64,000 nt of DNA from Thermoleophilaceae bacterium. GTDB taxonomy: Bacteria; Actinomycetota; Thermoleophilia; Solirubrobacterales; Thermoleophilaceae. The DNA is taken from the NCBI GenBank assembly GCA_030447905.1, contig JAUJNZ010000002.1, positions 8,261-72,260 of the forward strand. The letters run 5' to 3'. Numbering within the stretch: the stretch's first letter is position 1; each line of letters starts with the position of its first letter. Below the pieces are notes generated by a model. That model saw only the letters and a list, made by a program, of their open reading frames with translations. It searched no databases and was not told the origin of the DNA. This document shows, piece after piece, positions 1 to 25,517 of this stretch. The translations under genes and the position numbers were made by a program.

Positions 1-112
1 ATCCGAGCCTGAGCATAGGTCGCTCCCTCGGCGCCGGGGGGCTGATCGCCGCGAAGGTAACGTTGGTAACTCGCTCTTTGCGCGGTTTGGGTCGCTGCGC
101 CTTTAGTGGTCT

Positions 113-688
113 CTACGTGACGCGCGTCGAGAGTCCGGGATAGCCGACGAGCAACCCGTGCCGGTCGTACGCGAGCCGTGCGGAGAAGTCGAGGGCCGGA
201 GCAGAGTAGTCGTAGCCTTGGAGCCCTCCCTCGTCCGCGACTCGCTCGTAGCTCTGTTCCAGGGGCTCGACGCTCGCGTCGCGGGCACGGACCCACGCCG
301 CGCGCGCGGTCGTCACCTGGCCGACCGCCGGGTTCAGTCGGCGGATCGGCAGCGCATTGGTGAACGCCGACGCTTCGAGGTCAACGTCCATGCATCCCGC
401 GAGATCGCCCGCTGTCTCTCCGTCGACGCGCCAATGGCCGGCGCCATCGTGCTCGAGGACGAGCGAACGATTGCCCTGCGGCGAGCGGGCGGTCACCTCC
501 ACCCACTCGGTCCCCCAACCCTCGTCGACGACGATCGCATAGTTGACCGCCCAAGGCCGGGCATCCTCGACGCCGGTCGAGTAGCCCTCGAAGCTATAGC
601 CGCCGTCGACCCGGGCGAGGAAGAGCACCTCGAATCCCGTGCGAGCGCCCTCATGTCGCCATGCCGCGTGGCTCGGTAGGTCGGCCAT
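113..688 (-). CDS. putative glycolipid-binding domain protein (DUF1089 type)
   Basis: The 191-residue protein matches the putative glycolipid-binding family (PF06475) in length and in its core pattern: an N-terminal W-R-H segment, a central segment around GHWRVDGE, then a DVDLEAS-FTNALPIRRL stretch at about residues 100-118 and a final Y-D-x-x-G-L-L-V-x-Y-P segment. There is no signal peptide or membrane segment, so it is probably cytosolic. The family's molecular role is poorly defined; glycolipid binding is a family-level label, not something shown here. The ATG at 688 lies 15 bp downstream of the stop of the next gene on the same strand, so the two may be co-transcribed. Confidence 0.75.
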   Translation of the reverse strand: MADLPSHAAWRHEGARTGFEVLFLARVDGGYSFEGYSTGVEDARPWAVNYAIVVDEGWGTEWVEVTARSPQGNRSLVLEHDGAGHWRVDGETAGDLAGCMDVDLEASAFTNALPIRRLNPAVGQVTTARAAWVRARDASVEPLEQSYERVADEGGLQGYDYSAPALDFSARLAYDRHGLLVGYPGLSTRVT

Positions 689-703
689 GCCTCCTTCGAC
701 GTA

Positions 704-1720
704 CTACGCCGCGCGGTGACCGTTCTCGCGGGACGCGAAGTAGGCGGCCGCCGAGATCCCCCGGTCGAAGCTCGACCACTGCTCGCCATCCCCGAGGGTC
801 TTCTCGATCCGATCGAAGCTCCCGAGCCGCCCACCGAGGTTGTCCATCATGTGGACCAGCGTCGCCTCGCGGGTGCAGGGCACGACCGGGCTTCCGTGCT
901 CGAGGGCCCCGTGGTGGGAGAGGATGATGTGGAGGACGGCCTGCGCGGTGTCCGGGGGGAAGCCGGGCATGCTCTCGATCTGCCGCCGAACCATGTAGAA
1001 GCCGAGCGGGATCTCCCCCTGGAGGCGACCCGCGTCGGTCATCTCGATCGCCTCGCCTGCCGCCGCGTAGGCCTCGATCTTGCCGATGTCGTGCAGGAGG
1101 GCGCCCGTAACCGCGACGTCGCGGTCCAGGCCGGGAAAGGTCGTCGCCACCGCTCCGACCGCCTGGGCGACCGTGAGGCAGTGCTCGAGCAGGCCATGGC
1201 GATAGGCCTGGTGGTAGTGCTTGGCGGCGGGCGCCTCGCTCCACAGCGACCAGGTCTTCGAGCCGTCGGCGAAGAAGCGGCGGAGCAGCTCGCGTAGCGC
1301 CGGGGTATGGATGGTCTCGATCAGCGCGCGCAGGTCGCCGACCATCTGATCGACCGGCATCGCCGGCGCGTCGTGCAGGTCGGCCGGGTCGTACTCCTCC
1401 GGCTCGGCGGCCCGCAGCGTACGGACGGTGAGCGTCGCCCCGTAACGCGCGTCCACCGAGAAGCCGCCCGACACCCGGACGACGGCCCCGACCGCGCAGG
1501 CGGCGAAGGAGTCGTCCACCCCGTCCCACATGACCGCCTCGCACGAGCCCGTGGCGTCGCCGAGCTGAAGCTTCAGGAAGGGATCGCCGTTCTTCTTCAG
1601 CCGCCGCGCTCGGTCGCGCACGAGGAAGATCGAGTCGACGGCCTGGCCGTCGGCGAGGTCGCGCACATATGCCTTCGCCGGGACGTCGAGGGTGGGATGG
1701 CTGAGGGTCGGCTGCGTCAT
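704..1720 (-). CDS. YhaM-like 3'-5' exoribonuclease (OB fold + HD domain)
   Basis: This 338-residue protein has an N-terminal OB-fold nucleic-acid-binding domain (around FLKLQLGDATG, residues 48-58) and a C-terminal HD metal-dependent phosphohydrolase domain with an HGLLEH segment near residue 178, LLHDIGKIE near residue 209 and a later SHHG. This order and length are those of YhaM/Cbf1, which trims RNA and single-stranded DNA from the 3' end. The frame stays open far upstream, but similarity begins at MTQPTLSHPTLDV, so the ATG at 1720 is chosen. The gene ends 15 bp before the glycolipid-binding gene. Confidence 0.85.
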   Translation of the reverse strand: MTQPTLSHPTLDVPAKAYVRDLADGQAVDSIFLVRDRARRLKKNGDPFLKLQLGDATGSCEAVMWDGVDDSFAACAVGAVVRVSGGFSVDARYGATLTVRTLRAAEPEEYDPADLHDAPAMPVDQMVGDLRALIETIHTPALRELLRRFFADGSKTWSLWSEAPAAKHYHQAYRHGLLEHCLTVAQAVGAVATTFPGLDRDVAVTGALLHDIGKIEAYAAAGEAIEMTDAGRLQGEIPLGFYMVRRQIESMPGFPPDTAQAVLHIILSHHGALEHGSPVVPCTREATLVHMMDNLGGRLGSFDRIEKTLGDGEQWSSFDRGISAAAYFASRENGHRAA

Positions 1721-1758
1721 CCGGAGCGAACGTACCGGCCGCCTCGGACGCCTTGATC

Positions 1759-2403
1759 TCAGCCGCCGTAGTACCGCAGGGCCCGCGCTCCGAGGTCGGC
1801 GGTCAACCGGCCGTTCTGGACCGCCGACACCCCCGACGAGAGAAGCGGCACGACCCGCGCGCCCACTCGCAGCGCCATCCTGCGGCTCACGAAGCGAACG
1901 AGGCGCCTCCGCAGCGTTCGCTCCCCCGCGGGGTCGAGGCGCGAGCTCACGTAGGCGAGCGCGATCGGCTGGCCGGTCCGGTCCAGAGCGGCGCGCGCGT
2001 CCGCCGGGGTCTCGTAGAGGTCTTGCAGGGCGAGTAGCTCGGCGGGGCGCATCGGGTGTGCCGGATCGAACCCGTGGGCCGCGGCCACGAAGAAGACCAT
2101 CCGGCTCTGCAGCCAGGCGAGGGCGACCAGGTCCGGAACGACGGTGATGGCGCCTCCCGCCCCGACCACCGCGCCCTCCGCCCGCGCCAGCCGAGCGTGC
2201 CGGCGCACGGCCTGGCGAGCTATCTCCTCGGGGGGATGCCCTTGAGCTCGCAGGCGCTCGGCGAAGCGCCGGGCCGGCTCGGCGAAGCGCGCCGCGGCGG
2301 CGAGGGCAATGGTCTCGGGCGCGCGATCGGGCTCGGCCCGCAGCCGCTCGAGCAGGGAGGCGGGAGGGTCCTCCACGCCCTCCTGAGAGGGAGGTGCGGT
2401 CAC
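1759..2403 (-). CDS. EcsC family protein
   Basis: The 214-residue product resembles the EcsC family (PF12787): a helical N-terminus, a glycine-rich hydrophobic stretch (GAVVGAGGAITVVPDLVAL) followed by R-M-x-F-F-V-A-A-x-H-G-F-D, and a C-terminal helical region with paired glycines. Family function is unknown; a membrane-associated role is usually proposed. The GTG at 2403 is preferred to an ATG at 2463, because the latter would overlap the divergent ferritin gene and because a TATCCT hexamer lies 8 nt before the GTG, as for other apparently leaderless genes here. Confidence 0.7.
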   Translation of the reverse strand: MTAPPSQEGVEDPPASLLERLRAEPDRAPETIALAAAARFAEPARRFAERLRAQGHPPEEIARQAVRRHARLARAEGAVVGAGGAITVVPDLVALAWLQSRMVFFVAAAHGFDPAHPMRPAELLALQDLYETPADARAALDRTGQPIALAYVSSRLDPAGERTLRRRLVRFVSRRMALRVGARVVPLLSSGVSAVQNGRLTADLGARALRYYGG

Positions 2404-2461
2404 GGCGCGCGAGGATAGGGCCGGTGGTTTGCCTTCGCAAGGGCCCGGGCAATCCGAAGCC

Positions 2462-2983
2462 ATGACGACTTCGGAAATTCCCAGCACCCCAACCGCCGGA
2501 ATTCTCAGCGAGGACCATCGCCACCAGCGCGAGCAGATCATCGACATGCTCCAGCAGGCCTACTTCATGGAGCTCGAGACCGTGATGAGCTACGTCACGA
2601 ACTCGATCAACCCCGACGGAGTGCGCGCCCAGGAGATCAAGGAGTCCCTCGACGAGGACATCCAGGAGGAGCTCGGGCATGCGCAGCAGTTCGCCAACCG
2701 CATCAAGGAGCTTTACGGAGTAGTGCCCGGCTCGCTCGAGTTCAAGGCCGAGCAGAGCTTCCTCCAGCCGCCGACCGAGCAGACCGACGTCGTGCACGTG
2801 ATCAAGGGCGTCATCCAGGCCGAGACCGGCGCCATCGAGCACTACGCGAGGATCATCGAGGTCTGCGACGACGTCGACCTCGTCACCCAGGACATGGTGA
2901 TCGCGATCCAGCGCGACGAGGAGGGCCACCGCCGCCTGTTCGAGGGCTTCCTGCGCGAGTACCAGGTCGAGGGCCGGGCGTAG
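2462..2983 (+). CDS. ferritin-like / bacterioferritin family protein
   Basis: A 173-residue four-helix ferritin-like protein. Candidate di-iron ligands are spaced as in ferritin-like proteins: a Glu in MELETVMSY (about residue 38), E-x-x-H in EEELGHA (about residue 74), Glu/His in ETGAIEHY (about residue 122) and E-x-x-H in DEEGH (about residue 154). It probably oxidises and stores ferrous iron or protects against peroxide. The ATG at 2462 follows a short region shared with the divergent EcsC-family gene. Iron handling is the only functional statement the sequence supports; whether it assembles as a 24-mer or 12-mer cannot be told. Confidence 0.85.
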   Translation: MTTSEIPSTPTAGILSEDHRHQREQIIDMLQQAYFMELETVMSYVTNSINPDGVRAQEIKESLDEDIQEELGHAQQFANRIKELYGVVPGSLEFKAEQSFLQPPTEQTDVVHVIKGVIQAETGAIEHYARIIEVCDDVDLVTQDMVIAIQRDEEGHRRLFEGFLREYQVEGRA

Positions 2984-3078
2984 GGAGAGGTCCGCGGCGC
3001 GGGCCGGACGCAGGGGCGTCTCGCGGCGCCGGCGTCGGAACCGGCATGCCCGACTGAGCACCCGGGTACGGTGACGGG

Positions 3079-3954
3079 ATGAGCGACGTGAGCTGGAGCG
3101 ACCGTCCGCGCCTGCGCAACCCGCTGCTCGTCTGCGCCTTCAAGGGCTGGAACGACGCCGGCGAGGCGGCCTCGGCGGCGTTGCGCTTCCTGATCGAGAG
3201 CTTCGACGCCGAGCAGGTGGGAGCGATCGATCCCGAGGAGTACTTCGACTTCTCGGATACTCGCCCAACCGTGAGCCTCGAAGGTGGTCGCTCCCGGGTG
3301 ATCGAGTGGCCGGAGCTCGCCTTCCACGCCGCGAGCGTGGCCGGGGCCGATCGCGACCTTCTCCTGCTCGAGGGCCCGGAGCCCTCGTTGCGCTGGCGGA
3401 ACTTCACACGGACCGTGATCGAGGCCGGCCGAGAGCTGGACGCGCGCGAGATGGTCACCCTGGGCGCGCTGCTCGCGGACGTGCCCCACACTCGGCCCAC
3501 CCACGTCACCGGCCTCGCCTCCGACGACTCCCTGATCGAGCGCCTCGGCTTCGAGCGCTCGAGCTACGAAGGGCCGACGGGCATCGTCGGAGTCCTCCAC
3601 GATGCGTGCACCAAAGCGGAGATGCCCTCTTCCAGCCTGTGGGCCTCGGTGCCCCACTACGTGGCGGCCGCGCCGAACCCCAAGGCTGCGCTAGCCCTCG
3701 TGCGGAAGTTCGAGGGCCTCGCCCACATGGCCGTCGACGCGAGCGCGCTCGAGGAGGCCGCCGAGGACTACGAGCGCCAGGTCAGCGCCGCCGTGGCGAG
3801 CGACCCCGACGTCAAGGCCTTCGTCGAGCGCCTCGAGGAGTCGATGGACGAATCGGAGGAGAAGGCCCCGCCGCAGCGGATTCCCTCGGCCGACGCGATC
3901 GCGCGGGACTTCCAGCGGTTCCTGCAGCAGCGAGGGCCGGAGGAGGGGAGCTAG
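3079..3954 (+). CDS. PAC2 family protein
   Basis: The 291-residue protein belongs to the PAC2 (proteasome assembly chaperone 2-like) family. Typical is the N-terminal NPLLVCAFKGWNDAGEAAS segment, then a central beta-alpha-beta region containing VTLGALLADVPHTRP, and a charged helical C-terminus. In actinobacteria these proteins are widespread but not functionally settled. The ATG at 3079 is preceded by TACGGT at 3067-3072, six nt away, consistent with a leaderless transcript. It ends 12 bp from the convergent helicase-nuclease gene. Confidence 0.85.
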   Translation: MSDVSWSDRPRLRNPLLVCAFKGWNDAGEAASAALRFLIESFDAEQVGAIDPEEYFDFSDTRPTVSLEGGRSRVIEWPELAFHAASVAGADRDLLLLEGPEPSLRWRNFTRTVIEAGRELDAREMVTLGALLADVPHTRPTHVTGLASDDSLIERLGFERSSYEGPTGIVGVLHDACTKAEMPSSSLWASVPHYVAAAPNPKAALALVRKFEGLAHMAVDASALEEAAEDYERQVSAAVASDPDVKAFVERLEESMDESEEKAPPQRIPSADAIARDFQRFLQQRGPEEGS

Positions 3955-3966
3955 CCGCTCCCACCC

Positions 3967-6900
3967 CTACCGCTCCGCCGCCGGACAGGCGATCCGGTAG
4001 TCGCAGAACGAGCACAGCTCGTACGAGGGCCGGGGCTCGAACCGCTGCTCGAGGATGCCGTCGGCGACCGCGCCGACCGTGTCGCGAACCCGTTCGAGCT
4101 CCTCCTCTGAGTGGGACACCGGTACCTTCTCGCCTTCGAGCACGTAGTGGTAGCTCTGCGCCGCCGCGGGGAGCTGCCACGACTCTCGCGCCCCCATCTG
4201 ATAGAGGGACAGCTGCACGTCGTCGCGCAGCTCCTCTGCGGTCTTCGCCTTGCCGGTCTTGTAGTCGATCAGCTCGTGGGAGCCGTCGGGAAGGCGGTCG
4301 ACGCGATCGACGCGCCCGCGCACGAGGTGCGGCCCGAGGCGGAACGAGAAGGACCGCTCGAACCACACCGGCTCACCCGGGCGTTCACGCTCGTCCGCCC
4401 AGTAGCGCTCGAGGGCGTCGACGGCGCGGGCGCGAAACTGCCGGTCGTCGCTGCGGTCGCCGAAGCCGGCTCGACGCCAGGCGGCCTCGAACAGGCTCAT
4501 GAGCTCGTCGAGCGAGCCGTCGCCCTCGCCGCCGTGGAAGCGCTCGAGGACCTGGTGGACGACGATCCCGAACCGCTGGTTGATCGTCGGTTCCTGGGGC
4601 ACGCGAAAGACCCGCGCGAACTTGTACTTGAGCGGGCAGAGCCGGTAGGTCTCGACGTCCGAGGCCGAAAGCATGAGTCCCTCGCCGCGGCGCGGCAGGA
4701 AGCTCTCGAGCGACGGCTCGGCGCGGGCGCCGAGGGCCTCGGCGCGGCGTCGCTCGTCGCGCTCGCCCTCGCGGAGGAGGTCGTCGAGGGGCGAGGTCTC
4801 AAAGAGCTCGCGCTGCTCCGAAGTTGCTCCCTGCAGGAGGACGTCGTTGACCTCGGGGAGCGCATCGGATACCCGCTGGCCCTGCTTCTGGCGCTCGATC
4901 AGCGCCGCGACCTTCAGCAGCTCGAGGTAGCGTGCGCCGGCCTGGGCGACGTCGAGGTAGGTGTCGAGTCGCATCTCGGCGAGGTGGCCGCCCACGCGCG
5001 CGACCCCGTCGAGCAGCTCGTCCCGCATGACGCGAAACGTCGAGTGCAGGCCCTCGGTGGGGCCGAACAGCGCGTCCTCGATCGGCTCCCAGGAGCCACC
5101 GACGGCCGCGTGCGCCGCGTCGAGCAGAGGCGAGGGCCGGGCGGCCGCTTCGGCCCCGCCGGCGGTGGATTCGGCCCAGGAGAGGACGACGCCGCGCCGG
5201 GCGCGGGTGATGGCCCGGTAGAGGAGCCGGCCGGCCTCCGCGCCGGACCCGTCGGCGGAGTCGCCGTTGCGCCCGGCCGGGCTGGCAAGCCGATCGGCGT
5301 CGAGGCCCAGCACGAAGAGGTGGTCGAATTCGAGCCCCTCCACGCCGTGCATGGTGGTGACCCTCACCGCCCCCCGGGCGCCCGTGGGAGACCCCTCGTC
5401 GTCGCGCAGCCCGGCCTCGGCCACGGCCACCAGGTACCGCACGAAGTCACGCGTGCTCGCCTCGGGCTCGCGGCGCATGTAGGCGATGGCGAGCTCGCCG
5501 ATGCGGGCGATGTTGACGAGCCGCTCGGCGGTGTCGGCCTGCGTGGCGTAGAGCTGCTGGCGGCGCAGGCCGATCCGCTCGACCAGGCGGTGGACGAAGG
5601 CGTCGGGGCGCATCGACTCGAAGGCCATCGCCGCCGCGCGCTGGAGACGCAAGAAGGCAAGTCCGCGGTCGCGGCCCTCGGGCGAGAGCTGCGGCCCCTC
5701 GCAGGCGGCCTGGACCGCCGCCACCATGTCGAGCTTCCGGCGGCGGGCGAGCTGGGTGAGCCGCGCGACGTCGACCGAGCGCAGCTCGATCGGCGGTCGG
5801 GTCAGCGCGCGTACCGCCGCGCTCGAGTCGGCGGGGTCGGCGAGCAGGCGCAGCCAGGCCAGCACGTCGCGGACCTCGGTGCGCTCGAACAGCGCCGCCG
5901 GCCCTCGAGCCGGAAGGGCACCGCGCGCTCCTCGAGCGCCGAGGCGAGCGCGCCGCCCTCGCCGCGCACCGAGGGCACCAGCACTCCGATCTCCTCAGGC
6001 GGCACGCCCTCGACCGCGATCAGCCGCTCGGCCTCCCCGGCGACCATTTGGGCCTGTGCGCGCTCGGATGCGCAGCGCCAGAAGCGCACCTCCCCGGCCG
6101 CGACGCCCTCGCGCCCCCGCGCGGGCTTACCGCCGGGTCCCCCGCCCGCCGCGGCCACGGCGCCGGCGGCTTCGAGGATGCGCTGCCCGCAGCGGCGGCT
6201 GCGTCCCAGGTCCACCCGCGTGGCGTGGGGGTGCTCCTCGAGAAAGGCGAGCAGCTTCGAGTCGTCGCCGCCGGCCAGAAGCGCACCGACATCGTCGCCG
6301 GTCACCGTGACGTCGCCATGGCCGCGCAGGTGTCCGAGCACAGCGGACTGGGCTCGGCTTGCATCCTGAAGGTCGTCGACGAGGAGGTGGCCAAAGCGGT
6401 GCGCCACCCGCTGGCGCACGCCGGTGCGCTCGCGCAGGAGGCGCTCGGTCCGCAGGACCAGGTCGCCGGAGTCGAGCGCGCCGCGCTCCGCCAGCAGATC
6501 GTCGTGGCGGTCGTAGACCGCCGCGACCTCGAGCTCGCGCTCGGCCCGGGCCCGCGCCGCAGGGTCGTCGCCCGCCCGCCCGAGCAGGCCCTCGGCCCGG
6601 CGGCGCACGTCGCCGGGTCCCACCAGGGACTCCTTCAGCTGATCGATCCGGGCGACGAGGCTCGCCACGAGCGGCGCCGGGTTGCCGCGAATCTCGTGGT
6701 GGCTCAAGCGAAGGTCGTCGATCCGCTCGAGCAGGAGCGCGACGCGGTCGGCGCGGGTGACGGAGACGAAGAAGGGGTCGAGGCCCGCCTCGAGCGCCTC
6801 CTCGCGAAGCAGGCGCCGGCAGAGGTCACCGAAGCCGACGATCCAGAGCTCGTCGTAGGGGCGCTCGACGAGCGCCTCGACCTGGCAGCGCATCCGCTCG

Positions 6901-7111: not shown

Positions 7112-7987
7112 ATGGCTCTCTCCGAGCGATCCGATCCCGCCCTCGCCGCCGACTGGCTCTCACTCTGCCGGCGCGCCTCGAAGGGCGTCCGGGCGGCTCT
7201 GGAGGACTATCCGCGTCCCGACGACCGGGCCCGCACCACCGGCCGCGGCGAGGGCGGCGACCTCGCGCTCGCCATGGACCGGGCCGCCGAGGACGCGATC
7301 TTCGCCGAGATCGAGGCCCTGGGGGCGCCGCTGACCGCCGTCTCTGAGGAGCGCGGTCACGTCGCGATCGCGGGCGGCGGACCGGCCCACGTCGTCGTCG
7401 ACCCGATCGACGGCTCGCTGAACGCCAAGCGCCGCCTCCCCTCCCATTGCCTCTCGATCGCCGTCGCCGCGGGGGCGACGATGGAGGAGGTCGAGTTCGG
7501 CTACATCGCCGACCTCGGGAGCGGCGCGGCCGACGGCGGCGAGTGGTGGGCCGAGCGCGGCGCGGGCGCCCGCCTCGACGGTGGGCGCATCGCCGTCTCC
7601 GAGCGCCCCGACGACTCGACGGGGCTCGAGGTGCTCGCGATCGAGTCGACCCACCCCCGGATCGTCGCCGCCACGGCCGAGTCGCTCACCGCCACGGGCG
7701 CGCACCGGCTGCGCGCCTTAGGGGCGATAGCGCTCTCGCTGTGCCTGGTGGCGGGCGGCCGCGCCGACGCCATGGCCAGCCTCGCGCCGTGCCGATCGGT
7801 CGACGCGGCGGCGGGTCAGCTCATCGTGCGCGAGGCAGGCGGTGTCGTGGCCTTCCCGGACGCCCGCGACGCCGACGGTCGCACGTCGCTCGATCTCTCG
7901 ATGCGCTCGCGGGTGATGGCCGCATGGCGCCAAGAGGAGCTCGACCTACTCGCAAAGGCGCTTGGGGGCCCTCCCGATCGGGAATAG
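7112..7987 (+). CDS. inositol monophosphatase family protein
   Basis: The 291-residue protein shows the IMPase/FBPase fold signature: a metal-binding VSEERG (Glu) segment near residue 75, DPIDGSLNAKR near residue 96 (the DPxDGTxN motif, here with Ser) and a C-terminal CRSVDAAAGQLIVREAGG (the WDxAAG motif, with SVDAAAG replacing it). It should hydrolyse a phosphomonoester such as inositol phosphate, a sugar bisphosphate or a nucleotide bisphosphate; the substrate cannot be assigned. It is divergent from the helicase gene with only 20 bp between starts, and a TAGGAT hexamer sits 9 nt before the ATG. Confidence 0.85.
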   Translation: MALSERSDPALAADWLSLCRRASKGVRAALEDYPRPDDRARTTGRGEGGDLALAMDRAAEDAIFAEIEALGAPLTAVSEERGHVAIAGGGPAHVVVDPIDGSLNAKRRLPSHCLSIAVAAGATMEEVEFGYIADLGSGAADGGEWWAERGAGARLDGGRIAVSERPDDSTGLEVLAIESTHPRIVAATAESLTATGAHRLRALGAIALSLCLVAGGRADAMASLAPCRSVDAAAGQLIVREAGGVVAFPDARDADGRTSLDLSMRSRVMAAWRQEELDLLAKALGGPPDRE

Positions 7988-7994
7988 CCGGTCC

Positions 7995-9047
7995 GTGGCC
8001 ACGAGGCTCCGCCGCTCAGACTGCTCCGGTCCCGGCATAACCCGCCGCGGGCGGGGTCGCGGCTTCGAGTACCGCGACGAGACCGGCGAGCGGATCGAGG
8101 ACGAGGACACGATCGCCCGGATCCGGGACCTGGTCATCCCGCCCGCGTGGCAGGAGGTGTGGATCTGCCCGCACCCGGGCGGCCACATCCAGGCCACGGG
8201 GGTCGACGCGCGCGGGCGCAAGCAGTACCTCTACCACGAGAAGTGGCGCGAGCGCCGAGACCGCGAGAAGTTCGACGAGATGCTCGGCTTCGCACGCGCC
8301 CTGCCGCGCATGCGCGAGCGGGTGAACGCCGACCTGGCCGGCGACGAGCTCTCGCGCGAGCAAGTGCTGGCCTGCGCCGTGCGCCTGCTCGACCGCGGCT
8401 TCTTTCGCGTCGGCGGCGAGGAGTACGCGGCCGAGAACGAGAGCTTCGGCCTCGCGACCATGCGCCAGGAGCACGTCCGCATCGACGGCCGCACGATCAC
8501 CTTCGACTACCCGGCCAAGAGCGGCCGGCGCCTCCTGCGCTCGTTCGTCGACCAGGAGATCTGCGACGTCATGCTCAAGCTCAAGCGCCGCCGGGGCGGC
8601 AGCCCCGAGCTGCTCGCCTACAAGCGCGGGCGCGAGTGGATCGACCTGCGCTCCGAGGACATCAACGAGTACGTCAAGGAGGTCACCGGCGGCGAGTTCT
8701 CGGCCAAGGACTTCCGTACCTGGAACGCGACCGTGCTGGCGGCGACGGCGCTGGCGGTCGGGGGGCCGATGGCCGGCGCCTCTCACACCGCGCGCAAGCG
8801 CGTCAAGACCCGCGCGGTCAAGGAGGTCGCCCACTACCTCGGCAACACCCCGGCGGTCGCGCGCTCCTCCTACATCGACCCGCGCGTGTTCGACCGCTTC
8901 GACTCGGGACTCACCATCGGCGGAGCGCTCGCCGACCTCGTGGCCGGCGACGACGTCGGCGCGCCGGGGGTCCAGTCCGAGCTCGAGGGCGCCGTGCTCG
9001 ACCTCATCGCCGACACGGAGTCGGAGGCGATCGAGCGGGTAGCGTGA
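7995..9047 (+). CDS. type IB DNA topoisomerase (poxvirus-like)
   Basis: The protein is about 350 residues and collinear with bacterial topoisomerase IB. It has the N-terminal segment GITRRGRGRGFEYRD, an IPPAW-x-x-VWICP motif, a catalytic-domain KDFRTWNATVLAA and the C-terminal SSYIDPRVFDRF segment holding the nucleophilic tyrosine. It relaxes supercoils through a 3'-phosphotyrosyl intermediate. The GTG at 7995, just after the phosphatase stop, starts where family similarity starts; an in-frame ATG at 7962 would overlap the upstream gene by 26 bp and is the alternative. Confidence 0.9.
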   Translation: MATRLRRSDCSGPGITRRGRGRGFEYRDETGERIEDEDTIARIRDLVIPPAWQEVWICPHPGGHIQATGVDARGRKQYLYHEKWRERRDREKFDEMLGFARALPRMRERVNADLAGDELSREQVLACAVRLLDRGFFRVGGEEYAAENESFGLATMRQEHVRIDGRTITFDYPAKSGRRLLRSFVDQEICDVMLKLKRRRGGSPELLAYKRGREWIDLRSEDINEYVKEVTGGEFSAKDFRTWNATVLAATALAVGGPMAGASHTARKRVKTRAVKEVAHYLGNTPAVARSSYIDPRVFDRFDSGLTIGGALADLVAGDDVGAPGVQSELEGAVLDLIADTESEAIERVA

Positions 9048-9055
9048 GGCTCCCT

Positions 9056-10225
9056 TCAGGGCTCCGCTGGAGCCGGCTCGGCGGCGCTTTCCTTCGACGC
9101 CTCCCGCTCGCGCTCCGCGCGGCGGGCCTCGGCCTCCTCCCGCGCACGCTCGCTTGCGCTGGCGAGGCGGGGTGACGCGAAGCGCAGCACCCGCCTGGTC
9201 ACCGCGGCCACGGGGACGGCCAGGAAGGCGCCGGCGATGCCGGCTATCGCCCCGCCCGCGGTCACCGACAGCAAGGTGATCGCCGGATGGAGGTCGACCT
9301 GCCGGCCCATCACGACCGGCTGCAGCAGGTTGCCCTCGACCTGCTGGACGACGAGGGCGGCTACCACGACCAGCAGCGCGTCGCCGAGCCCGCCGGAGAC
9401 GAGGGCCACGAGCGCCGCAACCGCTCCGGCCACGGCCGCGCCCACCAGCGGGAAGAACGCGGCGAAGAAGGTGAGGACGGCGAGCGGGACCACGAGCGGC
9501 ACGCCGATCAGGATGAGGGCCAGACCGATGAACAGCGCATCGAAGATGCCGATGATCACCACACCGACGAGGTAGGCCTGGAGCGTCTCCCAGATCTGGG
9601 GAACGAGCTCCTCGACGTTGGGGCGGCGGCTCTCGGGCACGGCCGCGCGCAGCCAGCGGTAGAACCGCGGGCCGTCCTTGAGAAAGAAGAAGAGCAGGAA
9701 AAGGGTGACGAGCACACCGATCACGAGCTCGACGGCGAGTCCGGCGGCGCCGAGCACCTGACCCGCGAGGCTGGCGATCCCGGACTGGACCGCGCCGAAG
9801 GCCTCACCCAGTCTTCGCTCGAGTTGGTTCTCGGAGACCGGGAAGACGCTCAGCACGAAGCGCTCGATCTCCCGCAGACCCTGCGCCACGTTGAGGTTGA
9901 CCGCCCGGATCTGCCCGACGACCTCGGGGACGACGAGGAGGTTGAGTCCAACGATGAGGGCGAGCAGACCGAGCAGCGTCACCAAGGCGACGATCCAGTC
10001 GGGCAGCTTGGTGCTCCGCAGGCGCCGCGCGACCGGCTCCACGAGCGCGGCCAGCAGCACGGCGGCGATCACCGGCAGGACGACCACCCGCAGTCGCGCG
10101 ATGACCCAGAGCACGAGCACGGCTGCCCCCACGAGCAGCAGGACGCGCCACGCGTAGGCGCTCGCGCGGCGAAGCCCGCCGGGAACGAGATCCGCCGCGG
10201 GCGTGGGGGGTGTTGACTCGGGCAT
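9056..10225 (-). CDS. AI-2E family transporter (PerM/YtfL-type membrane protein)
   Basis: This 389-residue integral membrane protein has the AI-2E transporter (PF01594) arrangement: two N-terminal hydrophobic helices, a periplasmic-type helical segment around residues 100-190, then the FLLFFFLKDGPRF motif and five or six further membrane helices including GIFDALFIGLAL and QQVEGNLLQPVVMG. The C-terminal 45 residues are highly charged (E/A/R-rich) and probably cytosolic and disordered. Members export or exchange varied solutes; AI-2 export is a family name only. ATG 10225 is chosen because upstream residues are low-complexity and unlike the family. Confidence 0.85.
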   Translation of the reverse strand: MPESTPPTPAADLVPGGLRRASAYAWRVLLLVGAAVLVLWVIARLRVVVLPVIAAVLLAALVEPVARRLRSTKLPDWIVALVTLLGLLALIVGLNLLVVPEVVGQIRAVNLNVAQGLREIERFVLSVFPVSENQLERRLGEAFGAVQSGIASLAGQVLGAAGLAVELVIGVLVTLFLLFFFLKDGPRFYRWLRAAVPESRRPNVEELVPQIWETLQAYLVGVVIIGIFDALFIGLALILIGVPLVVPLAVLTFFAAFFPLVGAAVAGAVAALVALVSGGLGDALLVVVAALVVQQVEGNLLQPVVMGRQVDLHPAITLLSVTAGGAIAGIAGAFLAVPVAAVTRRVLRFASPRLASASERAREEAEARRAEREREASKESAAEPAPAEP

Positions 10226-10360
10226 GCTGGTGGGGCGCGAGAAGCCGGCCGGAGCCCAAGCTAGCGCGCCCGTCGATCTCCCGCCCCGGACCGATCCGTC
10301 GCCTGCCCGCCGTAGCCGGGTAGTAAGGCCAAACCCGCAGCCTGTGCGCCGCAATAACCG

Positions 10361-10367
10361 AAGGAGG
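10361..10367 (+). promoter_or_regulatory. strong Shine-Dalgarno site
   Basis: AAGGAGG lies 11 nt upstream of the ATG at 10379. It stands out because many genes in this window have no Shine-Dalgarno sequence and look leaderless. Confidence 0.7.
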
Positions 10368-10378
10368 ACGCAACCCCC

Positions 10379-11023
10379 ATGCAAGCCGCCATCGCCGGAG
10401 GACACGGCCAGATCGCCCTCCGCCTCACCCGCCTCCTCCGCGACCGCGGCGACTCGGTCCGGTCCCTCATCCGCAACCCCGATCACTCAGACGAAGTTCG
10501 CGACGCGGGCGGGGAGCCCGTCGTGTGCGACCTCGAGCAGGCGAGCGAGGAGGAGGTCGCCGAGGCGGTCGGCTCGGTCGACGCAGTGGTCTTCGCCGCG
10601 GGCGCGGGACCCGGCAGCGGCTCCGAGCGCAAGGAGACGATGGACTACGGCGGCGCGGTCAAGCTGATCGCCGCCGCCAAGGCCAACCGGATAGCCCGCT
10701 ACGTGATCGTCAGCGCCATCAGCGCCGATCCGGAGATCGAGGGTGACGAGACCTTCGCCGTCTACATGCGCGCCAAGGGACGCGCCGACACGGAGCTCGC
10801 CGCGAGCGGGCTCGAGTACACGATCGTCCGCCCGGGCTCTCTGACCGACGACCCGGGCACCGGACGGGTCGAGGTCGGCGAGCGCCTCGGCGGCGGCTCG
10901 GTAAGTCGCGACGACGTCGCCGCAGCGGTGGCGGAAGCTCTTCACGATCCGGCCGCGGTCGGCCGGACCTTCGACCTCGTCGCCGGCGAGACCCCCGTCG
11001 ACCAGGCGATCGCCTCGCTGTAG
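10379..11023 (+). CDS. NAD(P)-binding SDR-type protein (atypical, NmrA/YtfG-like)
   Basis: A 214-residue Rossmann protein. It begins with a dinucleotide-binding loop AIAGGHGQIALRL (GxxGxxx-type), followed by a charged residue at the end of the second strand, VVFAAGAG in the fourth strand and a YMRAKGRAD segment with the Y-x3-K pair typical of atypical SDRs. Such proteins are oxidoreductases or redox-sensing NAD(P) binders; the substrate is not evident. The start is fixed by the consensus ribosome-binding site 11 nt upstream. Confidence 0.85.
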   Translation: MQAAIAGGHGQIALRLTRLLRDRGDSVRSLIRNPDHSDEVRDAGGEPVVCDLEQASEEEVAEAVGSVDAVVFAAGAGPGSGSERKETMDYGGAVKLIAAAKANRIARYVIVSAISADPEIEGDETFAVYMRAKGRADTELAASGLEYTIVRPGSLTDDPGTGRVEVGERLGGGSVSRDDVAAAVAEALHDPAAVGRTFDLVAGETPVDQAIASL

Positions 11024-11163
11024 GCCAGCGTCGTCCATAGCCAGGCCCTGGCCGGTGCCCCCGCGGTCAGCGGCGCCGCCAACGTCGCTGAGGGGTTTAG
11101 GCGGACGCTAGCGGGTGAGGAGGCTGACCCAGCCGACCAGCCGACCAGCCGAGGAGCCTCCCC

Positions 11164-12162
11164 GTGCCCGACATCCGCTACTGGACCCAGCTCGCCACCG
11201 AGCAGTTTCCCCCGACCAGCATCGTGGAGCAGGCGGTGGCGACCGAGGAGGCGGGCTTCGATGGTCTCAGCCTGAGCGACCACTACCAGCCGTGGTGGGA
11301 GCCGGGAGAGTCGGGGCAGGCGTGGACCATGCTCGGCGCGGTCGGTCAGGCCACCGAGCGCGTGGCCATCGGCACGGGCGTGACCACTCCCGTCCACCGC
11401 TATCACCCCGCGGTCGCCGCCCAGGCCTTCATGACCCTCGAGGCGCTCAACCCCGGGCGTGCCTACCTCGGCATCGGCTCCGGCGAGTCGCTCAACGAGA
11501 CACCGTGCGGGATGGACTGGCCGCCCGTGCGCGAGCAGGTCGACCGCATGGAGGAGTCGCTCGAGATCATCGGCCGCCTGTTCGACGGCGAGCGGCTCGA
11601 CTACGACGGCCGCTTCTTTCGTACCAAGCGTGCCCTCCTGCACACCCTCGCCGGGCGCCGCCCGCCGCTCTATGTCTCCGCCTTCGGTCCGCGCGCCGCT
11701 CGGGTCGCCGCTCGCCTCGGCGACGGGCTGTGGACGCTCGGTGATCCCGAGACGGCCCCCGAGGTGATCGACGCCTACACGGGCGCCCGCGCCGAGGCCG
11801 GCAAGGACACCGGCGAGATCATCCTCCAGGTGGGCTTTTCGTGGGCCGAGGACGACGACGCCGCTCTAGAGGGATCGCGCGTCTGGAAGTCTGTGCTGCA
11901 GCCCGAGTTCTTCACCGACGACTGGAGCGACCCCCAGTCCATGTACCGCCACGCCGAGGATCAGACGAGCGACGAGGAGTTCAAGCAGGGATTCATCGTT
12001 GCCGCGGACCCCGATCATCACGTGGAGCGCGTCCGCGAGATCGAGCAGCTGGGCGCGACGATCGTATGCCTGCAGAACGTTTCGGGGGCGGATCCGCTCG
12101 GGGCCCTGCGGGTCTATGGCGAGCAGGTGCTGCCGGCCCTGCGCGGAGCACGGGTGGACTAG
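11164..12162 (+). CDS. LLM-class F420-dependent oxidoreductase (glucose-6-phosphate dehydrogenase-like)
   Basis: The 332-residue protein is a luciferase-like TIM barrel of the F420 group: DGLSLSDHYQPW near residue 40, VAIGTGVTTPVHRYHPA near residue 75, then GRAYLGIGSGESLNE near residue 97. This block matches F420-dependent glucose-6-phosphate dehydrogenases and related hydride-transfer enzymes. It would transfer hydride between cofactor F420 and an organic substrate in the cytosol. Substrate specificity is uncertain. The start is the GTG at 11164. No F420 biosynthesis gene is in the window. Confidence 0.85.
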   Translation: MPDIRYWTQLATEQFPPTSIVEQAVATEEAGFDGLSLSDHYQPWWEPGESGQAWTMLGAVGQATERVAIGTGVTTPVHRYHPAVAAQAFMTLEALNPGRAYLGIGSGESLNETPCGMDWPPVREQVDRMEESLEIIGRLFDGERLDYDGRFFRTKRALLHTLAGRRPPLYVSAFGPRAARVAARLGDGLWTLGDPETAPEVIDAYTGARAEAGKDTGEIILQVGFSWAEDDDAALEGSRVWKSVLQPEFFTDDWSDPQSMYRHAEDQTSDEEFKQGFIVAADPDHHVERVREIEQLGATIVCLQNVSGADPLGALRVYGEQVLPALRGARVD

Positions 12163-21995: not shown

Positions 21996-22676
21996 CTAGG
22001 AGACCAGGCCGAGCACGGCGATCGCGGCCAGCCCGGCGAGGGCGGTCGCATTGACCACCCGCGGAAAGCTGGTCTGGCCGACCGACTGCAGCCGATCGAC
22101 GACCGCGGCCGCACCCTCAGAGGTCGAGGTCCGCGCCGCCAGGAGCACCGAGACCCCGCGGGCGAGCCCGAACGGCGCGAGCAGAAGCGCACCCAGGCCC
22201 GGATCGCCGACCGCGAGCGCCGCCCCGCTCACCGCCACGTAGGTGCCGTAGGTGAGGAAGGTCAGAAAGCCGACGCCGAGGCCGATGCCGTAGAGGAACG
22301 CGGCCACGGGGGGCGAGAAGAAGGTCCGCCACCACTGCGGGACCTGACGGCGCCGGCACGGAAGCGGCACCCGGAGTCCGACGCCCTCGCGCGCCGCGTA
22401 GACCAGGCTCAGCACCGCGACGAGCGCCGCGCCCGCGAGGCCCCACGGGGCGCCGAGCAGCAGCCCGATCCCACCGAGCAGAGCGCCGAAGGCGGCGGCG
22501 GCGAGGGTCGCGCCGAGCGCGTGCAGGGCGACCGAGGCGAGATATCGGCGGCGGCTACCCCCGTGGACCACGGGGACGATGGTCTCGACCATCGACAGCC
22601 CTCACGGGCTGAAGAGCGCCGAGAAGCCGGCGACCAGCGAGGCCGCCATCCCGGCGACGAGCACCGCCTCTCCCAT
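21996..22676 (-). CDS. CcdA/DsbD (MauF)-like membrane protein with in-frame TGA at the conserved Cys: candidate selenoprotein
   Basis: Read straight through the TGA at 22604-22602, the frame gives a 226-residue polytopic membrane protein. Its first helix reads GFSALFSP-[TGA]-GLSMVETIVP. CcdA/DsbD/MauF relatives have SPCGLSM-type motifs here, where the Cys moves electrons across the membrane; the TGA sits exactly at that Cys (residue 25). The frame before and after the TGA is the same, so no indel is needed. Later segments FFSPPVAAFLYGIGLGVGF and LLLAPFGLARGV also fit the family. The only other Cys is at residue 107. The start ATG 22676 overlaps the upstream stop (TGATG). The alternatives are a nonsense mutation, or a 24-residue peptide plus a separate ATG start at 22592. 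Confidence 0.6.
22559..22604 (-). promoter_or_regulatory. candidate bacterial SECIS-like hairpin after the in-frame TGA
   Basis: Downstream of the TGA (22604-22602) the minus strand holds CCCCGTG-GTC-CACGGGG at 22575-22559, a 7-bp perfect stem whose apical loop carries G-U about 34 nt from the TGA. The apex GUGGUCCAC shares GGUC with the E. coli fdhF SECIS apex. A first hairpin, GATGGT-CGAG-ACCATC (22593-22578), lies between. Bacterial SECIS elements normally sit 16-37 nt after the UGA with a GU apex, which this satisfies. No bulged U is obvious in the stem. Confidence 0.45.
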
Positions 22677-23203
22677 CAGCAGCGGGTGCTGGTGCGCCGG
22701 TAGACGATGCAGAAGACCTTGCGGCCGCTCGAGCAGTAGCCGGTCACCGCGCGATCCCCGTTGATGCGGTAGCGCACCCGCGCACAGCAGTCGTAGATGC
22801 GGCGCACGCGTCCGTAGCAGCAGCGGCTCCAGCCGCCGCCGTAGCGGGGGTAGGACACCCCGTAGCGCCGCCTGACCATGTACTCGCACACCTTGTGGCG
22901 CGGCTGGCTCTGCGAGACGTAGCGGCGCCCGTTGTCGTCGACCTTGTAGCCGTATCTGGGATGGAGCGGGTAGCCGTCGGAGTCGATCCGCGAGCGAGGC
23001 GAGAACGGGTGCGGGCAGGACCCGGTGCTACCGGTGTGTCCGCATATGTGGTGGGCCTCGGCGAGATCGGGGTCGATCGCCGCCGCCACGAAGGATCCGC
23101 CGGCCAGGGCGACGACGCCTGTGCCAAGCCTTCCCAGGAACGAGCGCCGCGGGGTGCGCTCGGCCAGGTCCACGGAGAGACGCTCCGCCGCGGTCTCGAG
23201 CAT
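22676..23203 (-). CDS. Tat-exported ten-cysteine protein, methylamine dehydrogenase light-chain-like
   Basis: The 175-residue protein has a twin-arginine signal (R19-R20-S-F-L-G, then a hydrophobic VVALAGG stretch) and a mature part with ten cysteines at residues 54, 63, 106, 128, 129, 139, 140, 157, 165 and 175. It contains RINGDRAVTGYC near residue 146. Dense cysteines, Tat export and MauD/MauE/CcdA-like neighbours resemble methylamine dehydrogenase light chains. However, only one Trp (125, just before CC) is in the mature part, so a two-Trp TTQ cofactor cannot form. It is probably a disulfide-rich exported protein that needs the neighbouring redox proteins for folding. It overlaps both neighbours by 1 bp. 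Confidence 0.7.
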   Translation of the reverse strand: MLETAAERLSVDLAERTPRRSFLGRLGTGVVALAGGSFVAAAIDPDLAEAHHICGHTGSTGSCPHPFSPRSRIDSDGYPLHPRYGYKVDDNGRRYVSQSQPRHKVCEYMVRRRYGVSYPRYGGGWSRCCYGRVRRIYDCCARVRYRINGDRAVTGYCSSGRKVFCIVYRRTSTRC

Positions 23204-23793
23204 CAGCTCATCACCTCTTCCCTTTCAGGTCGGTCGGAGCGCCCTTCGAGCCGTCTCCGAGCCGTGTCGACAAGGCCTTCCATCTGCTCCAGGTTGTTGA
23301 CCGTCCCCTTGGCCTGGACGACGCCGTAGTCGTCGAGGATCAGCACGTAGGGAGTCCCGGGGATCTCGAGCGCCTCGCACGCCTCGAGCGAGGCGACGAG
23401 GGGAGCCGACCCGCGCTTGCGCCCGTAGGCGGCGCTCGTCTGCTCCTCGCCGGTGTCGGTGATCACTACGGGAGCGAGCTCGCCTCCGCGGGCGACCGCC
23501 TCGATCGACGGAAGCACTTGGCGGCAGACGTCGCAGCCGGGCGAGACGAAGAGCAGGAGCTGCGCCCGATCTTCGCCTCCGAGCACGAGGTCGTCGCCGT
23601 CGACGCCCGTGACCGCGATCGGCTCGATCGCCTCGCCGAGCGGCGGTCCCTCGTCGTCGATCTCGAGCGCCCCGCGGGGTCCAAGGCGCAGGTGCAGCGT
23701 CCCGATCTGGCGCGCGAGCGCGACGACGACCACGGCCAGGACGGCCACGACGCCCCACAGCACCACGTACGAGATCATCCACCAGCCGGACAT
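23203..23793 (-). CDS. MauD-like membrane-anchored thioredoxin-fold protein
   Basis: The 196-residue protein has one N-terminal membrane helix (residues 8-28), the MauD-like LHLRLGPRGALEIDDEGPPLG segment split over residues 33-53, and a thioredoxin fold with C87-D-V-C90 in LFVSPGCDVCRQ. A cis-Pro region GTPYVLIL follows near residue 157. It should sit outside the membrane and shuffle or reduce disulfides in the exported Cys-rich protein encoded next. It is the first gene of the minus-strand operon and has a good promoter 36 bp upstream. Confidence 0.8.
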   Translation of the reverse strand: MSGWWMISYVVLWGVVAVLAVVVVALARQIGTLHLRLGPRGALEIDDEGPPLGEAIEPIAVTGVDGDDLVLGGEDRAQLLLFVSPGCDVCRQVLPSIEAVARGGELAPVVITDTGEEQTSAAYGRKRGSAPLVASLEACEALEIPGTPYVLILDDYGVVQAKGTVNNLEQMEGLVDTARRRLEGRSDRPEREEVMS

Positions 23794-23828
23794 GACAGCA
23801 ATAGCACCCCTGCCTGTGAGTTCGGTGA

Positions 23829-23857
23829 TGTATACCGGCGCGGGCGTCTAGAGTCAA
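23829..23857 (-). promoter_or_regulatory. sigma70-type promoter of the mau-like operon
   Basis: On the minus strand, TTGACT (23857-23852) and TATACA (23834-23829) are separated by exactly 17 bp. This predicts a start site near 23822 and a leader of about 29 nt before the MauD-like ATG. It is the clearest consensus promoter I found in the window. Confidence 0.65.
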
Positions 23858-23889
23858 CCTCCGCCTCGGATCGAACGGCCCCCCGCCCC

Positions 23890-24393
23890 TTGTCGTCGCT
23901 GCTTGCCTCCCTCCTCGCGCTCGTGTTCGCCTGGGCGGCCGTGGCGAAGCTCGTTCGCTTCGCGGCGTGGCGCACCGCGGTCGAGGGGGGCTACGGGCTG
24001 CCCCGACCGCTCGCGGCCGGCGCGCGCTACGGCGCCCCGGCGGCCGAGGCCGCCGTAGCGACTCTGCTCCTGGGCGGGGCGGTGCAGGCGGGCGCGAGCC
24101 TGGCGCTCGCGCTGACCGTCGTCTTCGGCGTGGCGATCCTCCGCGCCCGCTCCATCGTCGGGCGGCGGCTGCCGTGCGGATGCTTCGGAGGCCGGTCAGC
24201 GCACGATTACCGCGCGATGCTTGCGCTCGATCTAGCCCTCGCCGCCGCAGCGGTGGTCGTGCTCGCGAGCGGAAGCGCCGCCGCGCCGGCGCGCCTCGAC
24301 CCGAGCGCCGCCGTACCGGGCCTGCTCGCCGCCGCGGGGGTCGGGCTCGCCGCCTGGGTGGTCCGCCAGGCGGCCGCGGGCATGCGGCGCTAG
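23890..24393 (+). CDS. MauE/DoxX-like redox-associated membrane protein
   Basis: From the TTG at 23890 the 167-residue protein has four membrane helices and LPCGCFGG (C96, C98) in the segment after the third helix, the hallmark of the MauE family. The first helix, LVFAWAAVAKL, matches MauE/DoxX proteins. MauE with MauD is needed for disulfide formation in methylamine dehydrogenase light chain. Here it is divergent from the MauD-like gene with a 96-bp gap that holds the operon promoter. Other starts are possible because the frame is open upstream. Confidence 0.75.
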   Translation: MSSLLASLLALVFAWAAVAKLVRFAAWRTAVEGGYGLPRPLAAGARYGAPAAEAAVATLLLGGAVQAGASLALALTVVFGVAILRARSIVGRRLPCGCFGGRSAHDYRAMLALDLALAAAAVVVLASGSAAAPARLDPSAAVPGLLAAAGVGLAAWVVRQAAAGMRR

Positions 24394-25517
24394 CCCGTCG
24401 CTCCCATCGCGCTCTGGGCCCGGTCGCCGACGAGCCCCTTGTAGGCTGCGGCCAGCCGCCTGACCCCTTCCTCGATCTCATCCGTCGTCACGCCTGAGTA
24501 AGCGATCCGCAAGGAGCTGTCTCCCCCCTCGAGCAGGAAGTCGGTCCCCTTCACGAAGATCAGGCCGCCCTCCTTCGCCTCCGCCTCCAGGGCGTCCACG
24601 TCGGTGCCGTCGGGCAAGTCGAGCCAGAGGAAGTAGCCCCCCTCGGGGAGGACGAACCGGGCGTCGGGCAACTGACGTCGAAGGGCCTCGGCGAGGGTGT
24701 CGCGGCGAGCGCGGAGCGCCGTCTTGACCGTCTCGATCGAGCGCTCGATGGCGCCCGACCGGCAGAACTCGGCGACGATGGCCTGCGAGACCATGCTCGG
24801 CGAGATGTAGGTGTTCGTCGCCATCCGCCGGACGGCCGCGACCGTCTCTTCGGGACCGGCCAGGTAGCCGACCCGGATCCCCGGGCAAACCGTCTTCGAG
24901 AACGACGACGCGTAGACGACGTGCTCGTCCGAGGCGAGCGAGAGCATCGTCGGGAGGCTCTCGCCGTCGAAGCGCAGCTCGACGTAGGGATCGTCCTCGA
25001 AGACCGTGAAGTCGTACTCGCCGGCGAGCTCGAGCAGCCGCCGGCGCTTGGCGCCCGACAGCGTGCAGCCCGCCGGGTTGTGGAAGTTCGGGATGACGTG
25101 GGCGAGCTTCGGCCGTGCTCCATCGCGCAGCGCGCGCTCGAGGGCATCGACGTCGAGGCCGTCGTCGTCGAGCTCGATCGGGACGAGCTCGGCTCCCATC
25201 TCCCGCAGGCCGAGCAGCGTGCGATCGTAGGTCGGCGCCTCGACCACCACCTGATCGCCGGGCTCGACGAGCAGGCGAAAGAGGAACGCGTCGGCCTGAA
25301 GCGACCCGTTGGTGGCGATCACGTTCTCGGGCCCGAGCCCCTGGCGGTCGGCGATCCACTCGACGAGCGGCCGGTACCCCTCGGAGGTCCCGTAGGCGAA
25401 AGCGCCCGCCGGGTCCTGTTCGAGAGCGCGCGCGGCCGCCGCACGCAGGTCGTCGCCGGCGACTATGTCGGGCGAGGGAGCGCCGCGGGCGAAGGAGATC
25501 GTGCCGGCGGGGGTCAC
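24390..25517 (-). CDS. PLP-dependent aminotransferase, class I/II (2-aminoadipate transaminase/LysN-like)
   Basis: The 375-residue enzyme has fold-type I features: GSLQADAFLFRLL near residue 70, APTYDRTL near residue 93, NFHNPAGCTLS near residue 142, DDPYVELRF near residue 175, and the PLP-lysine motif SSFSKTVCPGIRVGY near residue 205. The set is closest to the MocR-domain-type and 2-aminoadipate/aromatic aminotransferases, without the GntR regulator. GTG 25517 is preceded by TAGGGT seven nt upstream. Its 3' end overlaps the convergent MauE-like gene by 4 bp. The amino-acid substrate is not assignable. Confidence 0.85.
   Translation of the reverse strand: MTPAGTISFARGAPSPDIVAGDDLRAAAARALEQDPAGAFAYGTSEGYRPLVEWIADRQGLGPENVIATNGSLQADAFLFRLLVEPGDQVVVEAPTYDRTLLGLREMGAELVPIELDDDGLDVDALERALRDGARPKLAHVIPNFHNPAGCTLSGAKRRRLLELAGEYDFTVFEDDPYVELRFDGESLPTMLSLASDEHVVYASSFSKTVCPGIRVGYLAGPEETVAAVRRMATNTYISPSMVSQAIVAEFCRSGAIERSIETVKTALRARRDTLAEALRRQLPDARFVLPEGGYFLWLDLPDGTDVDALEAEAKEGGLIFVKGTDFLLEGGDSSLRIAYSGVTTDEIEEGVRRLAAAYKGLVGDRAQSAMGATG

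What the first reader, a model, noticed from the sequence alone, without database searches (positions are those of the whole stretch)
22559..22676. Candidate selenocysteine at the redox Cys of a CcdA/MauF-like membrane protein
Seen: in the frame 22676-21996 (minus) a TGA (22604-22602) lies between FSP and GLSMVETIVP, and the frame is the same on both sides. Known: CcdA/DsbD/MauF-type proteins have SPCGLSM-type motifs at this point, with the Cys as redox residue. Seen: a 7-bp hairpin with a G-U apex (GGUC) begins 27 nt after the TGA, within the usual range for bacterial SECIS elements. Inference: the TGA is decoded as Sec, giving a 226-residue transmembrane selenoprotein in a mau-like cluster. 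I know of no Sec form of this family described, but could not search.
Basis: partly seen in the sequence, partly recalled or inferred. Interest (0 to 1): 0.88.

Follow-up and report, generated by a model that had tools for sequence, protein, structure and literature searches.

The report
Selenocysteine in a membrane protein, MauF
A stop codon in the middle of this bacterial membrane-protein gene is almost certainly read as the rare selenium amino acid selenocysteine, and the same substitution recurs in dozens of relatives across the Actinomycetota, giving what appears to be an undescribed, widespread selenoprotein family tied to the folding of a cysteine-rich exported protein.

Summary
The in-frame TGA (22604-22602, minus) is real and is very probably decoded as selenocysteine (Sec). 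The genome has tRNA-Sec, SelA, SelB and SelD. The protein is a MauF homologue (profile comparison with three proteobacterial MauF: 99.6%, E 6e-25), and the TGA falls on the MauF WSPCG cysteine. Of 70 homologues read from the window's class, 42 have TGA and 28 TGC/TGT at exactly that column; no other codon occurs. Across the phylum, UGA forms dominate (24 of 24 further loci inspected).

A hairpin whose loop is centred 35 nt after the UGA is present in 29/42 UGA genes and 0/28 Cys genes, and its stem covaries. Among phylum genomes at least 95% complete, 24/25 with the UGA form have tRNA-Sec (the other has SelA), against 0/3 Cys-form and 11/26 gene-less genomes. In four genomes the cluster lies beside selA-selB.

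The gene sits in mauE-mauD-(Tat-exported Cys-rich protein)-mauF, so the best reading is a Sec-dependent membrane thiol relay for disulfide formation in that protein. That role is inferred. No Sec-MauF appears in a 2026 catalogue of 119 prokaryotic selenoprotein families, in NCBIfam or in the papers searchable here. Not tested: selenium in the protein.

The parts
21996..22676 (-). mauF-like gene, 226 aa read through the UGA, predicted polytopic membrane protein
   Evidence: translation; hhalign to proteobacterial MauF 99.6%, E 6e-25; AlphaFold2 model pLDDT 93.9, almost all helix
22602..22604 (-). UGA codon, predicted selenocysteine (residue 25, motif FSPUGLSM)
   Evidence: 42 TGA / 28 Cys / 0 other at this column in 70 class homologues; 24 of 24 further phylum loci inspected have TGA, motif read in all
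22558..22576 (-). SECIS-like hairpin, 8 bp plus 3-nt loop GUC (22568-22566), loop centre 35 nt after the UGA
22676..23203 (-). Tat-exported cysteine-rich protein with a MADH-light-chain-type leader (candidate substrate); stop overlaps the mauF start
   Evidence: homologues near mauF in 41 of 70 class loci by HMM
23203..23793 (-). mauD-like membrane-anchored thioredoxin-fold protein, CxxC motif (CDVC)
   Evidence: NCBIfam MauD E 1e-28, below its equivalog cut-off; found in 61 of 70 loci
23890..24267 (+). mauE domain (divergent gene; ORF runs to 24393, start codon not settled)
   Evidence: Pfam MauE 68.6 bits, cut-off 27; found in 57 of 70 loci

Best explanation
This is a selenocysteine form of MauF. 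UGA 22604-22602 is decoded as Sec by the organism's own SelA/SelB/SelC/SelD system, directed by the hairpin at 22576-22558 (supported by sequence; not shown biochemically). The Sec takes the place of the only invariant cysteine of MauF, at the end of the first predicted transmembrane helix. Inferred mechanism: because no second conserved Cys exists in the domain, the selenolate probably works as a one-residue relay. It would form a mixed selenenyl-sulfide with the CxxC of the membrane-anchored thioredoxin MauD (and/or the CGCFG cysteines of MauE) and so pass oxidising or reducing equivalents across the membrane. This would let disulfides form, or be corrected, in the Tat-exported cysteine-rich protein encoded just upstream, as the mauE-mauD-mauF genes are thought to do for the methylamine dehydrogenase light chain.
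For: Genome has tRNA-Sec (68.7 bits; ARAGORN SeC, anticodon tca), SelA (505 bits) next to SelB (304 bits; see also 8) and SelD (343 bits). TGA aligns with the MauF Cys. 70 class homologues after removal of one duplicate: 42 TGA, 28 TGC or TGT, no other codon. Hairpin in fixed register in 29/42 UGA vs 0/28 Cys forms; contiguous stem of 6 bp or more in 49/59 vs 2/28; covariation 0.537 vs shuffled 0.206, slides at most 0.225. Sequence after the UGA is under purifying selection, dN/dS 0.13-0.30. tRNA-Sec in 24/25 UGA-form genomes of at least 95% completeness vs 0/3 Cys and 11/26 gene-less (p = 3e-5 vs gene-less); the remaining UGA genome has SelA. selA-selB-mauE-mauD-Cys-rich-mauF(UGA) contiguous in two genomes, and sel genes within about 7 kb in two more. 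Conserved neighbourhood. Only residue 25 is invariantly Cys/Sec.
Against: No protein, ribosome-profiling or selenium evidence. Within the class, 10 of 42 UGA-form genomes had no strict hit to tRNA-Sec or SelB. Two of these have SelA, two have partial SelB of 210-231 bits, and the other six are fragmented MAGs at 78-91% completeness; congeners of three of them have the machinery. About 10 of 59 UGA genes lack a simple stem of 6 bp or more at the usual place. Some Cys-form genomes keep tRNA-Sec, so co-occurrence inside the class alone is weak (p about 0.03-0.09). The relay mechanism and the substrate are inferred; no MADH heavy chain was seen in the window near the gene.
Confidence: 0.88

Rival explanations
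1. The TGA is an ordinary stop, and the locus is either a pseudogene or a truncated 24-residue ORF plus a separate 198-aa ORF restarting at ATG 22592.
For: A downstream ATG ORF of 198 aa exists.
Against: The TGA sits at the same codon in dozens of divergent homologues, with purifying selection downstream and no other disruptions. The restart would cut off the conserved WSP motif and first helix. The UGA-specific covarying hairpin would have no role.
Confidence: 0.02
2. Sequencing or assembly error turning TGC/TGT into TGA.
For: The window genome is a draft in 25 contigs.
Against: 42 of 70 class homologues and 24 further loci from independent assemblies carry TGA at the same codon, together with a hairpin that Cys forms lack.
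Confidence: 0.005
3. UGA is read here as cysteine (or another residue) by a variant tRNA rather than as Sec.
For: The alternative in the family is always Cys. Unusual Cys-coding tRNAs reading UGA have been proposed in other bacteria (own knowledge).
Against: A complete SelA/B/C/D set is present. UGA-form genomes carry tRNA-Sec far more often than gene-less ones. sel genes adjoin the gene in four genomes. The hairpin matches the bacterial SECIS model.
Confidence: 0.04
4. Sec-MauF is real, but the module serves electron transfer or maturation of a quinone-cofactor (TTQ-like) enzyme, not disulfide formation.
For: Canonical mauF, E and D lie in the methylamine dehydrogenase cluster. The Cys-rich protein has a MADH-light-chain-type Tat leader.
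Against: No mauB or mauG was recognised among the ORFs around the window gene (inspection). In the alignment A5 the mature Cys-rich protein has only one invariant Trp (W125), whereas TTQ needs two (TTQ chemistry from own knowledge). MauD and MauE are thiol-redox type proteins.
Confidence: 0.2

Closest known systems
MauF (methylamine utilisation protein F, e.g. Paracoccus denitrificans PDEN_RS23540)
   Same: Homologous over about 205 columns (hhalign 99.6%, E 6e-25), including WSPCG, the PQRRxQVP loop and the YGxxLGLxxxT region; accompanied by mauE and mauD
   Different: All three reference MauF have Cys; here Sec. No mauB, mauG or amicyanin recognised; different order; many relatives carry an extra C-terminal domain of about 240 aa
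CcdA / DsbD transmembrane domain (Pfam DsbD_2, PF13386)
   Same: 6 of 68 members match DsbD_2, best E 2e-5; TM1 motif SPC; thiol chemistry across the membrane
   Different: hhalign to E. coli DsbD not significant (1.8%). No second conserved Cys, whereas CcdA/DsbD use a Cys pair (own knowledge)
Known selenoprotein families with DsbD-like or membrane parts (TsoB rhodanese/DsbD fusion-like, YeeE/YedE, SO_0444)
   Same: Sec in proteins with membrane or DsbD-like parts (PMC13188914 Table 1)
   Different: Different families and motifs (UxxxxU, GUxSG, UxC); none of 68 members matches any NCBIfam selenoprotein model

Membership tests
Bacterial selenoprotein | Sec-decoding machinery selA, selB, selC, selD in the genome | tested here: met
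Bacterial selenoprotein | In-frame UGA aligned with Cys in homologues (Cys/Sec pairs) | tested here: met
   42 UGA / 28 Cys, same column; 24 more UGA in the phylum
Bacterial selenoprotein | bSECIS hairpin: apical loop 16-37 nt after the UGA, G in the first two loop positions, MFE at most -7.5 kcal/mol | tested here: met
   window: loop GUC starting 33 nt after the UGA, -12.8 kcal/mol; UGA-specific and covarying
Bacterial selenoprotein | Selenium in the protein | not testable with these tools
   needs 75Se labelling or mass spectrometry
MauF | Sequence homology over the membrane domain with WSPCG and RRxQVP motifs | tested here: met
MauF | Genetic association with mauE and mauD | tested here: met
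   MauD in 61 and MauE in 57 of 70 loci
MauF | Association with methylamine dehydrogenase structural genes (mauB, mauA) | tested here: inconclusive
   no mauB recognised among the window ORFs (inspection); Cys-rich partner shares the MauA Tat leader, mature part not shown homologous; no Pfam hit
CcdA/DsbD | Two conserved transmembrane cysteines | tested here: not met
   only residue 25 is conserved as Cys/Sec

The most novel reading that the evidence does not exclude
A phylum-wide, old and undescribed selenoprotein family: Sec-MauF, a single-selenolate transmembrane oxidoreductase that drives disulfide formation in a Tat-exported cysteine-rich protein. In some Actinomycetota it may be a main reason for keeping the Sec-decoding system, as suggested by the contiguous selA-selB-mauE-mauD-substrate-mauF clusters.
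Probability: 0.5. Interest if true: 0.85.

Novelty: new variant of a known kind. Interest (0 to 1): 0.78.

Why it matters
It adds what looks like a new selenoprotein family with unusually strong comparative support, in actinobacteria whose selenoproteomes are little described. It places Sec inside the membrane, in a thiol relay that works toward the cell exterior, where one invariant residue replaces the usual Cys pair. Annotation that treats TGA as a stop would cut these genes at the UGA, so they are likely missed or truncated in public genomes. The natural set of Sec and Cys versions, with about four switches on the tree, makes it testable why selenium is used there.

Tried and rejected
Energy-based SECIS scan without fixing the register: strong hairpins also in Cys forms (GC-rich DNA), p = 0.43, not informative; replaced by the fixed-register test. 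Co-occurrence with strict tRNA-Sec/SelB cut-offs inside the class: weak because of incomplete MAGs and Cys-form genomes that keep the machinery. Foldseek against PDB: no match below E 0.1; profile against PDB sequences: none. DsbD comparison by hhalign: not significant. Pfam on the Cys-rich protein and on the C-terminal extra domain: nothing. Plasmid search with the MauF-like protein: no match. Genome-contig scan used the Cys form of the motif, so it recovered only Cys forms. Candidate formate dehydrogenase in the genome: its matched piece reads SRLCMSSA with no TGA, so it is no selenoprotein example.

Full report
Observation. The frame 22676-21996 on the minus strand is open except for one TGA at 22604-22602 and ends in TAG; read through, it is a 226-aa hydrophobic protein. 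Its ATG overlaps the stop codon of the upstream gene (TGATG, 22678-22674), so the piece before the TGA is not a stray ORF.

Machinery. The genome (G000, 2.58 Mb, 25 contigs, 95% complete) has a tRNA-Sec at C24:158581-158672 (68.7 bits, gathering 47; ARAGORN SeC, anticodon tca), selA directly before selB on C1 (NCBIfam selA 505 bits, cut-off 268; selB 304 bits, cut-off 242) and selD on C4 (343 bits, cut-off 125).

What the protein is. No Pfam or NCBIfam model matches it above cut-off. An alignment of 68 relatives (A1) matches three annotated MauF proteins from Paracoccus, Methylobacterium and Indioceanicola mau clusters with hhalign probability 99.6% and E 6e-25, with SPCG on SPCG and RRxQVP on RRxQVP. 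Six of 68 members match Pfam DsbD_2 weakly; a direct match to E. coli DsbD is not significant. The AlphaFold2 model is confident (pLDDT 93.9) and nearly all helical, without a solved homologue.

Cys/Sec pairs. Searching 399 genomes of the class found 74 with a homologue. Reading the site in 70 distinct homologues gives 42 TGA and 28 TGC/TGT, at one column, and no other codon. In a search of 396 genomes of the phylum, 69 have a homologue and outside the class nearly all full-length ones contain exactly one TGA; 24 loci inspected all have it in the motif. The tree needs four changes between U and Cys (shuffled mean 26.5), with Cys clades nested among Sec forms inside Actinomycetota. Codons after the UGA evolve under purifying selection (dN/dS 0.13-0.30).

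SECIS. Free energy alone does not separate Sec from Cys forms. Position does: pairing around a loop centred 35 nt after the UGA reaches 7 or more of 8 pairs in 29/42 UGA genes and 0/28 Cys genes, and no other register comes near this. On a gap-free alignment of 34 UGA genes, 88.6% of cells pair, six of eight pairs show changes on both sides, and the covariation score is 0.537 against 0.206 for shuffles and at most 0.225 for slid partners. The paired stretch encodes different peptides in different members (for example PVVHG, PAVCG, PLGER), so protein constraint alone does not explain the pairing. Allowing neighbouring loop positions, a contiguous stem of 6 bp or more exists in 49/59 UGA and 2/28 Cys genes. 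The single window sequence on its own is not exceptional (z -1.8).

Co-occurrence and linkage. In phylum genomes at least 95% complete, tRNA-Sec is found in 24/25 with the UGA form, 0/3 with the Cys form and 11/26 without the gene; the one exception has SelA. Inside the class the contrast is weaker (32/42 vs 14/27, p = 0.034), since many MAGs are fragmentary and several Cys-form genomes keep the machinery. In G158 and G181 the order is selA-selB-mauE-mauD-Cys-rich-mauF(UGA); in G323 and G671 tRNA-Sec, selA and selB lie within about 7 kb of mauF(UGA).

Setting and mechanism. The neighbours MauE, MauD and a Tat-exported Cys-rich protein recur (57, 61 and 41 of 70 loci by HMM); a second type of Cys-rich Tat protein (TSRR leader, WWKC and VDCN motifs) takes its place in the WSPUGES branch. 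MauD members keep a CxxC and MauE members a C(G/A)C(F/L)G motif. The Tat leader resembles that of the MADH light chain, but homology of the mature part is not shown. From established knowledge (not tested here) mauE, mauD and mauF are needed for methylamine dehydrogenase biogenesis, MauD/MauE being held to act in light-chain disulfide formation. The simplest reading is that this module does the same for another disulfide-rich exported protein, with Sec as the single redox residue of MauF (no second conserved Cys). The direction of electron flow is not known.

Origin in the window. The window gene groups (97 SH-aLRT) with loci of other actinomycete families (61% identity to L204 from G433), not with its own class, and G433 has the same divergent mauE / mauD-Cys-rich-mauF layout. 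Same-genus genomes held here lack a full copy. This suggests lateral transfer of the module.

Known or new. The 2026 review PMC13188914 lists 119 prokaryotic selenoprotein families; none is MauF/CcdA-like (nearest TsoB, a rhodanese/DsbD fusion). NCBIfam 20.0 has no model for the family. Paper searches for MauF or CcdA with selenoprotein terms found nothing relevant; two key papers by Haft and colleagues are not held, though their families are in the review table. So it appears undescribed, within the limits of this library.

Noticed in passing
L235 (G158:C9) 7207-11908; L236 (G181:C86) 70-4777; L237 (G323:C35); L238 (G671:C12): selA-selB (and in three of them tRNA-Sec) lie next to the mauE-mauD-mauF(UGA) cluster, so the Sec machinery and this selenoprotein may travel as one unit.
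   Followed up: partly
window 22000-24400 and L239: The window's module resembles that of other actinomycete families more than that of its own class, with the same divergent layout in G433; likely lateral transfer.
   Followed up: partly
L105, L098, L058, L050 (C-terminal parts of MauF homologues): 40 of 71 class homologue entries (one genome counted twice) carry an extra C-terminal domain of about 240 aa with repeats that look propeller-like by eye; no Pfam match.
   Followed up: partly
L059 and L053 (G400); G041 C37 and C81: Some genomes hold two paralogues, one Cys form and one UGA form, a natural side-by-side comparison of S and Se versions.
   Followed up: no
L021, L023, L022 (neighbours of WSPUGES-type MauF): A second kind of Tat-exported Cys-rich protein (TSRR leader, WWKC, VDCN, CNxFRYGQCN motifs) replaces the window's type; no Pfam match.
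   Followed up: partly
G000:C19:11961-14107 (L230-L233): A molybdopterin oxidoreductase gene is split between two frames near C19:13550, either a frameshift or an assembly error.
   Followed up: no
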